From NCBI GenBank assembly GCA_039545315.1, contig BCIM01000014.1:62001-126000 (forward strand): a DNA stretch of 64,000 nucleotides. The letters run 5' to 3'. Source of the DNA: Kondoa malvinella. Lineage: Eukaryota > Basidiomycota > Agaricostilbomycetes > Agaricostilbales > Kondoaceae. The translations under genes were made by a program, and so were the position numbers. Under the pieces are notes generated by a model. The model was not told the origin of the DNA. It made no database searches and saw only the letters and a list, made by a program, of their open reading frames with translations. Shown here in pieces: positions 51,139-57,651 of this stretch; the first letter of the stretch is position 1, and the number at the start of each line of letters is the position of its first letter.

Positions 51139-51384
51139 CTACTCTGGTCCAGATCCTCCTGGAATAAGCTACACATGCCATCAGCTTGCATCATCTGCTG
51201 TATATATATAAAAGGACATACCATAGCAATGTTGTTCCCGTTTAGAAGCGTTTGCTTGAGTTTGTTCGTTATCCGCCCTTGCGGGGTGTTTTCGCTGCAG
51301 ATCGTAGGTATACTAGTAGTGCAGCATTCCGAAGAGTAGCTCACTATTCCGTAACATCATCCAGAACCATGTTCACATAGTCGT
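51139..51384 (-). pseudogene. LSM5: Orphaned 3' end of LSM5 (left of the element)
   Basis: Three exons (51345-51384, 51222-51294, 51139-51168) encode the second half of LSm5: DYVNMVLDDVTE, YENTPQGRITNKLKQTLLNG, NNIAM, LIPGGSGPE and a stop. This is closer to canonical LSm5 than the expressed 3' end at 57071-57345. The three 5' exons are absent: above 51384 the DNA is unrelated to LSM5. Similarity to the intact gene begins exactly at the 17-bp repeat. I read it as the original 3' part of LSM5, cut off from its promoter by the insertion. Exon lengths and phases are intact, so the separation is probably not very old. Confidence 0.85.
51368..51384. repeat. Left copy of 17-bp direct repeat (att-like)
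   Basis: catgttcacatagtcgt, identical to 57346-57362. On the minus strand it encodes DYVNM of LSm5 plus two bases of the preceding codon. Flanking bases differ on both sides (c before and t after here; a before and c after on the right), so the identity is exactly 17 bp. Confidence 0.9.
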
Positions 51385-51800
51385 TCTGACGCGACGTCCA
51401 CCTGGTTTACCAAGCCTGCGCATGCCGCCCATGCGACCTATATATACACGTTTCTGCCACCACAATGGCACTACCTGTGCAATCCCTCTACTTCTGCTAG
51501 TGCTCCTGCTCCAGACCTCACGCTCCTCGCCTTGACATTGACATTGTTGACTTTGCCAGATTTGTGAAGACGAAAGTCACACGCTCGCGCACCATCGCAG
51601 CTGCTCTACAGGCCCTGCAGATACGATGTCTCTGTATATTCTGCCCGTGATGACACACGAAACATCTCGTGTTCGTTCTAAACGTGTCCCAAATCTTCCT
51701 GCCTGCTATTCTTGGCAATTCTACAATTCTACTTCTCCTTTGCTTGCTTTCTCTCTGGTCGACCTTTGTTGGCGAGCATCCTGCATTCCCTATCCGCGTC

Positions 51801-54800
51801 ATGAGCCACTCGCTCTCTGAAGAACCAGACCTGCAAAATGGGTGGAAACGAGTGCGGCCCAATGGGACGACGCCTCAGCAACATAGGACAGCTTCGAGAA
51901 CATGGAACAATCAGCCTGAAATGCAAATGACGGACCTAGGTGAATATCTTCGTTATCCACATGGATAACGGTGGCTCAATTGTCCAATGCAGACTTTTAT
52001 GGCTCTCACAACACCACACAAAACGTTGCTCACAACGCTTTGACCGAAAGCCTGTCTGCAGAGCTCTACAATCGCTCTTATAATCCTTGCAGTAACAATG
52101 CGCCCAGCGTTCCAGTGCCGCAGACGATATATCCACCGCAAAACCGAGGGATGTCAACTTTCGGCCTCCAGGAGTCCGTCCCTGTTGGTTATGAGAGTGT
52201 CTATGTGAGGGTGCTGCTTCTCGCCATGCTCTCCATTTCTGACGCTTGATGGCTTGATGTGTCAGCCCGATCAAGCCACTACTCTTGACCCCAACCGTTT
52301 TATGCCTGTGGGCTATGACAGTCTATATGTAAGCGTGCCGCTCATTGCCATCAGCTCGTTCTCACAAAGTATAATGGCAGCTCGATCAAGGAATGCAATC
52401 TGATCAATTTCACTACGCACCACAGCCCGTTCAGTCTCTGAGGCCGGCCGAGCAGACAGCGAACAGACAAGCATCAGCCTCTTCTCTTTTCCTCGAACCA
52501 TCCGGCTCTTCCGCCCAATACACAAGTCAGTTTCTACCAACTGGTCCAAACTCGATGGCCTCGATCTCTCCGATGCCCACCATGTTCTGTGATCCAACAG
52601 TACAGGCCTTTCAGCAGCCAATGTCATTCGCTACACCGAATGCATTCTATCCAGATGAGCAGATTCCCACCGGTATGCCTTCTTACAACGTGCAACCCAC
52701 CTATCGCTTCGATCCATTCTACCTTCCGTTGCAAGAAGCTACAACACATATGTATCCGCTTCCGCCTCATACATCCGGTCTAGCTCGCTCTGGAGTAACA
52801 CCTCCAACCGAAGCTTCCAACTCTTCCGCCGCCACTCATCCTGATGGACAAGCACAGCAAGCAGACATTTCATCAAATCCGTCCAGACACCAGCCGGCTT
52901 TCGGATCTTCCCAACAAGGAAGCACCAGTATACCTCTGATAGGTCTCGACTCGAAAATGGCCCGGTCTATCGCTCGAATGCAGGCGACTGCTGAAGCGAG
53001 AAAATTGGAGTCTCGCCCAGCAGCTGTAGCGATGGAAGCTGAAGAACTTGGAAGAGGCAATTATTACGCCAAATTGACCTTTCAACGCCAGCGCGAGCAT
53101 GATCGCGTCAAGAACCTTTTCGTCTATTATTTAGCCAGCGCGAAACATCTCTCACAGGAAGAGGTGTTTCACCAATTCCTGGATCGGTCCGGGCCTCTGC
53201 AGAAGCTCAATCAAGGTATTCGTTGAATCAATTGCCCTGCCTACCTTTGAGCCTAATCTTCGGTCTAGGAGACTATATGGCATCCGCGAAGTGGCTTGCA
53301 TCCAGTCTTGAAGGTCGCGTTCGGCGGAGCCATGTCAGCAAAGGTCTACTTGCCGAGCAAGATCAAGATGATGATCTACCAGAACCTGTTCAAGCCAAGA
53401 GAATTGTCAGATATCTGCATACCTTATTACTGGCAATGAATCGTGCGACGGGCCATCATCATCTCTCCCGCGAGCAAAAACAGCAAGTGACCTTAGTAAG
53501 CTCGAGCGCTCTGATCCTTAGATTGCGGAGCTCAATTCAATATAGTATATCAAAACCGATTTAGCTGCAGAACACAATCTCGGCAAAAGCATGAAGCCAA
53601 AACCAATACCTACGCAATTGGATTTCTTGAACATTGTGCTCTCTGCGTACAGTAGTCGCCCAAATTTCAAGAGTGTGCATGATGTAAAGTCTCTCTTCTC
53701 TGCACGTCATTGCTGGCTTGATGTCGTTTTAAGCGGAATTCATTTCTCTTTGGTCTGTTCGCGATTGTGTATGGTTCAGCACGCGTCGGTGAAGTCTTCA
53801 AATCTTCAATCTACCAGACGCAACCTGAAGAGAAATGGGATGCTCTGCGCTGGGGGGGTAAGCCTTTTTGCCGCGTATTTGCGAAATCAGGCCAAGTCGA
53901 ATGTGTGCAACAGGACGTTGAGTTTTTCGCTGTTGGTCTCGCAAATGGGGAAACGATACTTTGCCTCCGTATCCGTTACCGTTTGTTGAAGGGCTATCGG
54001 GACGACCCATCAAAATTGTCAGTCTTTCCGTGCCTGGTTCTTTCTTCTCATACATGTACTAAGGTCATCTCAATGTGATAGCAAGGATGTTATTCTATAC
54101 CTCGATAGAGCACAGCCCATGCTCTGCCCAGTCCGCATTGGATATGCGCTGGCGATAAGTGACCTAATTTTCGACGATTCAATTACTTTGCGCCAAATCA
54201 GCTCTCTCAAGGTCAAACCCGGCCAAAAAGTGATCTTTCCAATGAAGAATGAATGTTTGTCTAGATTTGCCATTCGCTACTCCAGCTACGAGCATGGTCA
54301 GCTCGTTGTCTCTGACAAACCTGCCACTACGGCTCGTTTCAGCGAAGGCCTGAGCACCTGCTCGAAAGCCGCGGGCATAATACTCGGTAAGTAGAGAGCT
54401 GTTCACTGTATGCTGGGTTGCTTATGTCTTTCAATGCTCTCAGATAGTATACTTGGTGGTGCAGTGCGTAGAATGGCCGCCAACAGCTTGAATACCCCGG
54501 ATGTGACAGCGGAAGATCGCAAGGCAGCCGGGCAGCCGGGCATGTTGCTGCTTCGGCGATATTTGTGAGTTTGCTTCGTTTCACCGCACATCCAGTGAAT
54601 GTTTATGCCCTTTGTTGAGTCTTAGTCTTCCTACATGGCGAAAACCAGCCAACTTGATGCACAAAGTCTCTTCAACAATCGGCCCGAAAACCGTGAGACC
54701 ATCGCTGTACGTGAATTCTTGAAAATCGTTGGAGAAACAGATAATGATGAGAGCTATCAGCTGTCGGGCCGTTTGGGTACGGACATGGACATACCTGTAG

Positions 54801-56771: not shown

Positions 56772-57070
56772 TCGTTTTGCTGTCAATCATTGTATATGAA
56801 GGTGATTTAACGCATTAGAGCATCGTAATGAATAGGAGATACCATCCTTAGCGAAATAGCTTGCGCCTTTGAATCCGCGCCTCATGCAGGATATGGCATC
56901 GCGAGAAGCAGATGCAAGACTCGGACGAGCATCGCTAAGATGTAAAGCAACGGAAATACTTCGGGTGAAGGCGCGATCATGAAAGATAGTTTCAAGGCCA
57001 AAACGGATGTGACATCTCAGGTACCTTTGATAACCAGAACCGTCGAATACATTTTGCGGAGTGCTGCGGT
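56772..57070. other. Short region between recombinase end and LSM5
   Basis: About 300 nt inside the element, between two convergent gene ends. No gene, repeat or RNA seen. It would hold the 3' UTRs of both genes. Confidence 0.3.
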
Positions 57071-57651
57071 CTAGAGCGGCACAGGTCCACTCCTGCACAG
57101 AACGTCAACAGCCGCAGCACGGAAGAGCAAATACACACACACCCTCCGGGTATTATCACTGCAATGATCAGCGTAGTCCCAGCGATGCATGGAGCACACT
57201 TACTAGCGATGTTATTGCCGTTCAAAAGCACGTCCTTGAGATGTGTTTGCTGGTAGCCTTGCGGTGATGTTTCGCTGGCGAACGTCAGCCAGGTCATTAC
57301 ACATGAGAGCGGCTATAATCACTATTCAATTGCGTTGACCAGGCACATGTTCACATAGTCGTCGAATCTGAGATCCATGTCATATCAGTCTGAGGCTCTG
57401 TTAGTTAGGCATGACGCCTAGGAAGGGCCTACCCTGCTAATGTGCCAGTGAATTCCTTTTCTGTAAGTTCCAGGAAGGCCTTGTCAGCGCTCAAAGAACG
57501 CAGACAGCCTGCCGAAACGGACCTGACTTCATAATGACCCAAATTTTGCTGCCAATGGCGCGGTCGATCAGCTCTGTCTCATTTCATCAGCTGAAGCACA
57601 GTCTCCAGATCTTCGATACTGACCTAGAGGCAATATTTGACTTCCGCTCAT
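57071..57651 (-). CDS. LSM5: U6 snRNA-associated Sm-like protein LSm5 (chimeric: host 5' exons, element 3' exons)
   Basis: LSm5 is a subunit of the Lsm2-8 ring on U6 snRNA and of the Lsm1-7 ring in mRNA decay. Seven exons (57624-57651, 57523-57573, 57433-57460, 57323-57367, 57204-57274, 57143-57158, 57071-57092) sum to 261 nt, 86 residues plus stop. The protein starts [20 protein letters not shown] and continues [16 protein letters not shown] (Sm1), CLVNAIEYE, SPQGYQQTHL, LLNGNNIAM (Sm2), IIPGGSGPVPL. Residues 1-43 are canonical; after the 17-bp repeat the sequence diverges from the canonical version kept in the orphan at 51139-51384. The intron after IEY/TEY is at the same place in both 3' ends. 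The divergent neighbour starts 84 bp away, so a shared promoter is likely. Confidence 0.9.
57346..57362. repeat. Right copy of 17-bp direct repeat (att-like)
   Basis: catgttcacatagtcgt, identical to 51368-51384, within LSM5 exon 4. It lies at the junction between host 5' sequence (right) and element-supplied 3' sequence (left). Confidence 0.9.

What the first reader, a model, noticed from the sequence alone, without database searches (positions are those of the whole stretch)
51368..57362. Integrative element that splits LSM5 and supplies a replacement 3' end
A DUF3435-like recombinase gene sits between an orphaned canonical LSM5 3' end (left) and a complete LSM5 gene (right) whose last exons are divergent. 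The host LSM5 5' exons (57323-57651, residues 1-43) join smoothly in sequence logic to the left fragment: Sm1 DYVNM followed by VLDDVTE and LIPGGSGPE, as in ordinary LSm5. The copy now in use continues with CLVNAIE and ends IIPGGSGPVPL. This is the pattern expected if an element inserts inside an essential gene by site-specific recombination and keeps it alive with its own spare 3' portion, as some prokaryotic islands do in tRNA genes. I know of no described fungal element that targets LSM5 this way.
Basis: partly seen in the sequence, partly recalled or inferred. Interest (0 to 1): 0.95.

Follow-up and report, generated by a model that had tools for sequence, protein, structure and literature searches.

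The report
Mobile element replacing LSM5's 3' end
In an unnamed fungus, a small piece of mobile DNA appears to have inserted inside the RNA-processing gene LSM5, pushed the gene's original ending aside and supplied a substitute ending of its own, a trick known from some bacterial viruses and one yeast element but not, as far as could be checked, from this kind of element.

Summary
One LSM5 5' half was found (57651-57346, minus strand) but two LSM5 3' ends, 5,978 bp apart, each starting in the same exact 17-bp repeat (57346-57362, 51368-51384) in the codons for DDYVNM. Between them lies a DUF3435 tyrosine-recombinase gene (51801-56771, plus strand). The attached 3' end is abnormal: its tail has a median identity of 0.53 to 120 listed LSM5 relatives against 0.79 for its own 5' half, a gap larger than in any of the 120. 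The orphaned left end is the normal one; joined to the 5' half it gives an ordinary LSM5. The attached tail still shows purifying selection (dN 0.37, dS 1.87). Best reading: site-specific insertion into LSM5 by an element that carries a spare 3' end. Closest parallels: phage 21 in icd and yeast WHO elements at FBA1. Its enzyme is that of Starship captains, but it lacks Starship size and cargo. Two additions to the finding: the recombinase frame is broken by a short tandem duplication, and the element is single-copy here. No sister genome, empty site or RNA data could be examined, so direction and mechanism are inferred, strongly but not proved.

The parts
57346..57651 (-). Host LSM5 5' exons, residues 1-43 (exons 57651-57624, 57573-57523, 57460-57433, and 57367 to the end of the repeat)
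   Evidence: Spliced model, GT-AG introns of 50, 62 and 65 nt; LSM domain PF01423 E 7.4e-19 for the chimera; the only LSM5 5' end found
57346..57362 (-). 17-bp direct repeat, right copy (inferred crossover core): DYVNM plus two bases of the preceding D codon
57071..57345 (-). Element-supplied LSM5 3' end, attached to the 5' half: exon parts 57345-57323, 57274-57204, 57158-57143, 57092-57071; introns of 48, 45 and 50 nt
51801..56771 (+). DUF3435 tyrosine-recombinase gene, about 1,370 residues in 16 exons (hand model), frame broken inside the catalytic domain
   Evidence: PF11917 E 3.5e-12 on the read-through
54523..54538 (+). Perfect 8-bp tandem duplication where the recombinase reading frame shifts
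   Evidence: the open frame changes here and PF11917 spans the break
51368..51384 (-). 17-bp direct repeat, left copy
51139..51384 (-). Displaced original LSM5 3' end: exons 51384-51345, 51294-51222, 51168-51139; intact frame and splice sites
51385..57345 (.). Element interior between the repeats (5,961 bp; 5,978 bp with one repeat), one DNA match in the genome, itself

Best explanation
A 5,978-bp element with a DUF3435 tyrosine recombinase inserted, by recombination between a 17-bp core in its own DNA and the same 17 bp in LSM5, into the codons for DDYVNM. The element carries a second LSM5 3' end directly behind its core. After insertion the host's 5' exons read into that spare end, which then serves as the LSM5 3' end, and the host's own 3' end was pushed 6 kb away, where it has no 5' exons. 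Shown: anatomy, repeat, chimera, which tail is normal, selection on the spare tail. Inferred: that the recombinase did it, the direction, a circular intermediate, which end is expressed, and that the different tail sequence stops the site from being recognised again. The recombinase frame is now broken, so the insertion is probably fixed.
For: The homologies stop exactly at the 17-bp repeat: upstream of the left copy there is no LSM5 exon, and downstream of the two copies the tails differ at 46 of 120 nt. All 120 listed LSM5 relatives (of 1,104 hits) resemble the left tail more than the right one. Right protein: 5'-half minus tail median identity 0.27, against a maximum of 0.171 in the 120; the left tail joined to the same 5' half gives 0.07, their median. 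The left tail's best matches (0.83) are P0090 (Mixia) and P0012 (Meredithblackwellia); Sporobolomyces and Leucosporidium are among the best named hits of a neighbouring gene; that all these belong to Pucciniomycotina is recalled. Purifying selection between the tails: differences by codon position 12, 11, 23; dN 0.37, dS 1.87. DUF3435 gene between the repeats. Published precedent for the principle: phage 21/icd and WHO/FBA1.
Against: One genome, one copy, no empty site, no reads. The 17-bp identity has a partial alternative: it covers conserved codons, where chance synonymous agreement is low (roughly 1 in 60, my estimate without a call) but not negligible. The recombinase frame is broken here, and one of its 15 modelled introns (53496-53596, 101 nt) has a weak acceptor; the 69-nt choice is out of frame. 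No RNA data: 1 of 19 AG acceptors within 150 nt upstream of the left core would join exon 3 in frame to the left end, so use of the left end through a 6-kb intron is not excluded. No exact inverted repeat with arms of 5 bp or more (spacer up to 10) was found around the core that would mark recombinase arms. No close relative of the recombinase was found.
Confidence: 0.8

Rival explanations
1. WHO-like homing: a nuclease cut LSM5 and repair from a donor allele copied in a gene plus a resistant 3' end, leaving the old 3' end downstream; the DUF3435 protein would act as the cutting enzyme or be a passenger.
For: The anatomy (chimeric full-length gene, mobile gene, displaced old 3' end) is the same as that described for WHO elements, and some WHO genes also lie in the opposite orientation.
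Against: No homing-endonuclease or intein domain in the recombinase gene product scanned in pieces; the enzyme is a DUF3435 recombinase; an exact 17-bp repeat at both ends with no longer shared homology fits site-specific recombination better.
Confidence: 0.08
2. Old tandem duplication of the LSM5 3' half, into which an unrelated DUF3435 gene later fell; the attached copy then diverged.
For: The tails share the first intron position exactly and the second within 2 nt, as copies of one gene would.
Against: The unattached copy would have had to stay canonical without 5' exons while the attached copy diverged, the opposite of expectation; homology begins exactly at the repeat.
Confidence: 0.06
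3. Alternative last exons: both 3' ends are used by one LSM5 gene and the recombinase gene lies within a long intron.
For: One in-frame acceptor 17 nt upstream of the left core; the left end is intact.
Against: It needs an intron of about 6 kb where the 23 introns modelled here are 43-101 nt; the product would lose F37-D38; 18 of 19 acceptors fail. It does not explain the repeat.
Confidence: 0.04
4. Assembly error joining two alleles or two loci.
For: Only one assembly, no reads seen; one ambiguous base at 62245.
Against: The repeat is only 17 bp, the assembly is contiguous (20 contigs for 19.09 Mb), and an error would not give a diverged tail under selection.
Confidence: 0.02

Closest known systems
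WHO elements at FBA1 (Torulaspora, Lachancea; PMC7282813)
   Same: Fungal nuclear element that replaces the 3' end of an important host gene, leaves the old 3' end displaced beyond the mobile gene, and gives the host gene two halves with different histories.
   Different: WHO encodes an intein-derived endonuclease with a zinc finger and is proposed to home by break repair; here the gene is a DUF3435 recombinase with a 17-bp repeat at both ends.
Phage 21 in E. coli icd (passage in PMC4129442)
   Same: Integration inside a protein gene with an alternative 3' end supplied by the element (165 bp there).
   Different: Prokaryotic phage; a different recombinase lineage and no introns (both recalled).
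Starships (DUF3435 captains; passages of PMC12134995)
   Same: DUF3435 tyrosine recombinase as mobility gene, direct repeats at the ends.
   Different: Starships are described from Pezizomycotina, 15 to about 700 kb with cargo; this one is 6 kb, has no recognised cargo and lies in a basidiomycete-like genome; no gene-restoring module appears in the passages I saw.
Cryptons (passages of PMC3212892)
   Same: Elements with a tyrosine recombinase and short direct repeats, proposed to move through a circle.
   Different: Mostly 4- to 6-bp repeats, GCR1_C domain in the fungal ones; DUF3435 has 0 occurrences in that paper's main text; no host-gene repair in the passages I saw.

Membership tests
Starship | DUF3435 captain | tested here: met
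   PF11917 E 3.5e-12 on the read-through; frame broken
Starship | Large size (15 kb or more) with cargo genes | tested here: not met
   5,978 bp between repeat starts; no second gene recognised in the ORF list and the ORFs scanned
Starship | Falls among captains in a DUF3435 tree | not tested
   The homologue search gave no hit at E<=1e-5 among 7,995 candidates, so no tree was made
Crypton | Fungal Crypton protein with GCR1_C domain | tested here: not met
   The only credible Pfam hit was DUF3435; no GCR1_C in the pieces scanned
Crypton | 4- to 6-bp terminal direct repeats | tested here: not met
   17 bp
WHO homing element | Host gene made of old 5' half and new 3' half, old 3' end displaced | tested here: met
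WHO homing element | Intein-derived endonuclease | tested here: not met
   No such domain in the pieces scanned
Gene-restoring site-specific integrative element (as phage 21/icd) | Exact core repeat at both ends, inside the target gene | tested here: met
Gene-restoring site-specific integrative element (as phage 21/icd) | Empty target site in relatives | not testable with these tools
   No fungal genomes open; the flanks joined in a script give an ordinary LSM5
Gene-restoring site-specific integrative element (as phage 21/icd) | Recombinase shown to act at the core | not testable with these tools
   Needs a cell assay; this copy's frame is broken

The most novel reading that the evidence does not exclude
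A lineage of DUF3435 recombinases specialises on the near-invariant DDYVNM codons of LSM5 and travels between fungi with its own LSM5 3' end. The spare end is kept working by selection in each host and makes the occupied gene unrecognisable to the recombinase: a eukaryotic counterpart of gene-restoring prophages, with an essential splicing/decay gene as its permanent home.
Probability: 0.5. Interest if true: 0.87.

Novelty: new variant of a known kind. Interest (0 to 1): 0.75.

Why it matters
If right, tyrosine-recombinase elements of eukaryotes can use the prophage strategy of entering an important single-copy gene without killing the host (that LSM5 is essential is recalled from yeast). It gives solo DUF3435 genes, whose status is unclear (passages of PMC12134995), a possible way of life: look for split host genes beside them. 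It explains how one half of a conserved protein can acquire a foreign history, and offers a direct test of target recognition by a DUF3435 enzyme.

Tried and rejected
Family search PF11917 in the whole genome rang nowhere, not even on this gene or in the 14 controls, so it says nothing. The read-through recombinase found no relative at E<=1e-5 among 7,995 candidates, none in viral contigs (7 stretches matched a pattern, 0 confirmed) and none in prokaryote genomes (74 matched, 0 confirmed). Exon-sized predictions from relatives would have been excluded by the length filter, so absence there is weak evidence. Weak genome hits on C5 and C1 showed no recombinase frame that I recognise by eye in ORFs of 110 aa or more (no family scan). 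An LSM5-like hit at C2 reads TGTLKGYDALLNLVLDEVEE, which I recognise from memory as LSM7-like, not LSM5; a further weak hit on C13 gave no LSM5 match when rechecked. Inverted repeats around the core: no exact arms of 5 bp or more. The two parts of the recombinase outside the DUF3435 region gave no Pfam match better than E 0.45. Literature: no paper in the library holds both DUF3435 and LSM5; the listings (25 of 30 papers shown) show no described element of this kind by title and start of abstract; the library lacks most subscription papers, and two Starship papers asked for were not held. Searches were for the parallels (one found none).
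Full report
What is there. The window is part of a 19.09-Mb, 20-contig assembly. On the minus strand LSM5 starts at 57651. Four exons carry residues 1-43 up to DDYVNM; the fourth runs on into CLVNAIEY and three more small exons end the gene at 57071 with IIPGGSGPVPL. At 51384-51139 lies a second LSM5 3' end, three exons reading DYVNM-VLDDVTEYENTPQGRITNKLKQTLLNGNNIAMLIPGGSGPE-stop, with GT-AG introns of 50 and 53 nt. 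Both begin in the 17-bp sequence CATGTTCACATAGTCGT (plus strand, 51368-51384 and 57346-57362), which has no other exact copy in the genome. The second intron of the attached end is shifted by 2 nt relative to the orphan and its last exon is split by a further intron.

How sharp the join is. Upstream of the left repeat there is no LSM5 exon: the sequences differ from the first bases outside the 17 bp. tblastn of LSM5 against the window and a search of the genome show a single 5' half; the genome search scored only 4 candidates and missed the right-hand 3' end, so very short exons elsewhere could escape it. One other genome hit (C2) looks like LSM7 (the name is recalled). So the evidence is for one gene and a spare end, not two genes.

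Which end is native. A database search with both versions gave 1,104 hits, 120 listed. All 120 of the 120 are closer to the left tail. The list was ranked with a profile built from both versions, so relatives with a right-type tail should not have been penalised, but only the top 120 were seen and not all of them are fungi. Taking each of the 120 in turn, the median identity of the 5' half minus that of the tail has median 0.07 and maximum 0.171; for the right gene it is 0.27, for the left tail joined to the 5' half 0.07. The tail of the right gene has a lower median identity (0.525) than that of any of the 120 (minimum 0.625; 0 of 120 below). The left tail's best matches are P0090 Mixia and P0012 Meredithblackwellia at 0.83, the right tail's best are 0.56. 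A neighbouring mitochondrial-carrier gene has unnamed relatives at 95, 83 and 81% and, among named ones, Sporobolomyces and Leucosporidium at 40-43%. The host is thus a basidiomycete without close named relatives in that database, probably of Pucciniomycotina (that placing, and the lineage of these genera, are recalled). The left end is therefore most likely the native one.

The attached end works as a protein end. Over the first 40 codons the two tails differ at 12, 11 and 23 first, second and third positions, 25 of 40 residues agree, dN is 0.37 and dS 1.87 (near saturation), Fisher p 0.003 for third against other positions. It keeps the E-Y-E and LLNGNNIAM-IPGGSGP stretches and scores as an LSM domain, 67.7 bits against 70.4 for the native version; the best solved relatives are LSm5 chains. 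It seems to have been a functional LSM5 end for a long time.

The gene between. It runs on the plus strand from 51801 to 56771, about 1,370 residues in 16 exons by a hand model; 14 of its 15 introns are 43-64 nt, one is 101. Read across one break it matches PF11917 (DUF3435) with 46.4 bits, E 3.5e-12, over 65-344 of 418 positions. The two sides of the break scanned apart gave nothing at E<=1, nor did the N-terminal 492 residues; the C-terminal 531 gave only a chance-level hit at E 0.45. The break coincides with a perfect 8-bp tandem duplication at 54523-54538. I take the R, second R, H and Y of a tyrosine recombinase to be recognisable on either side of the break, by eye and from memory. A second weak point is the intron at 53496, which keeps frame only with a poor acceptor 101 nt on. 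So this copy probably cannot move unaided. The interior DNA has one match in the genome, itself; the catalytic domain has no other match below E 0.05 and two unconvincing ones at 0.075 and 0.081. GC of the interior is 0.492 against 0.497 for the window, so composition does not mark it as foreign.

How it most likely works. Recombination between a circular element and LSM5 at the 17-bp core puts the element's own LSM5 end behind the host's 5' half and the host's end on the far side. The host survives because the junction is a conserved codon string and the spare end is complete with introns and stop. The spare end is under selection while resident, so it stays usable for the next jump. Because the bases next to the core differ (host GTTCTGGATG, element TGCCTGGTCA), the occupied gene may no longer be a good target. 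This paragraph is inference, modelled on WHO elements, where the replaced 3' end gives resistance.

Limits. One genome and no empty site. The 17-bp identity alone could partly reflect conserved codons. One in-frame acceptor upstream of the left core leaves a small door open for use of the left end by splicing (1 of 19). No recombinase-arm-like inverted repeat was found at the core. Reads and RNA were not seen.

Relation to known systems. The principle is known from phage 21 in icd (passage of PMC4129442) and, in fungi, from WHO elements in FBA1 (PMC7282813: abstract, passages, sections 10 and 13). The enzyme family is that of Starship captains and solo DUF3435 genes (passages of PMC12134995); Cryptons are the other small tyrosine-recombinase elements (passages of PMC3212892). 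The combination of a DUF3435 recombinase and a gene-restoring 3' end in a nuclear host gene was not found in the listings of searches of an incomplete library. I file it as a new variant of a known kind: it works like a gene-restoring integrative element and is not a Starship, Crypton or WHO element by the features tested.

Noticed in passing
54523-54538: Perfect 8-bp tandem duplication where the recombinase frame breaks inside its catalytic domain.
   Followed up: yes
53496-53596: Recombinase intron that keeps frame only if 101 nt long with a weak AAG acceptor; the 69-nt choice is out of frame. Possibly a second lesion.
   Followed up: partly
57093-57203: The attached LSM5 tail has an extra intron in its last exon, and its second intron is shifted 2 nt against the orphan.
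   Followed up: partly
51401: An AG acceptor 17 nt upstream of the left repeat would join LSM5 exon 3 in frame to the orphan 3' end across about 6 kb.
   Followed up: partly
33633-34865: Mitochondrial carrier (SLC25A39/40-like by a source's name for relatives) with a 95% relative known only from an unnamed contig of 14,838 bp; an assembly of that relative may show the empty LSM5 site.
   Followed up: partly
42904-45180: PPR-repeat protein, 758 aa (Pfam).
   Followed up: no
62245: Single ambiguous base in the assembly, inside an open reading frame of 617 aa.
   Followed up: no
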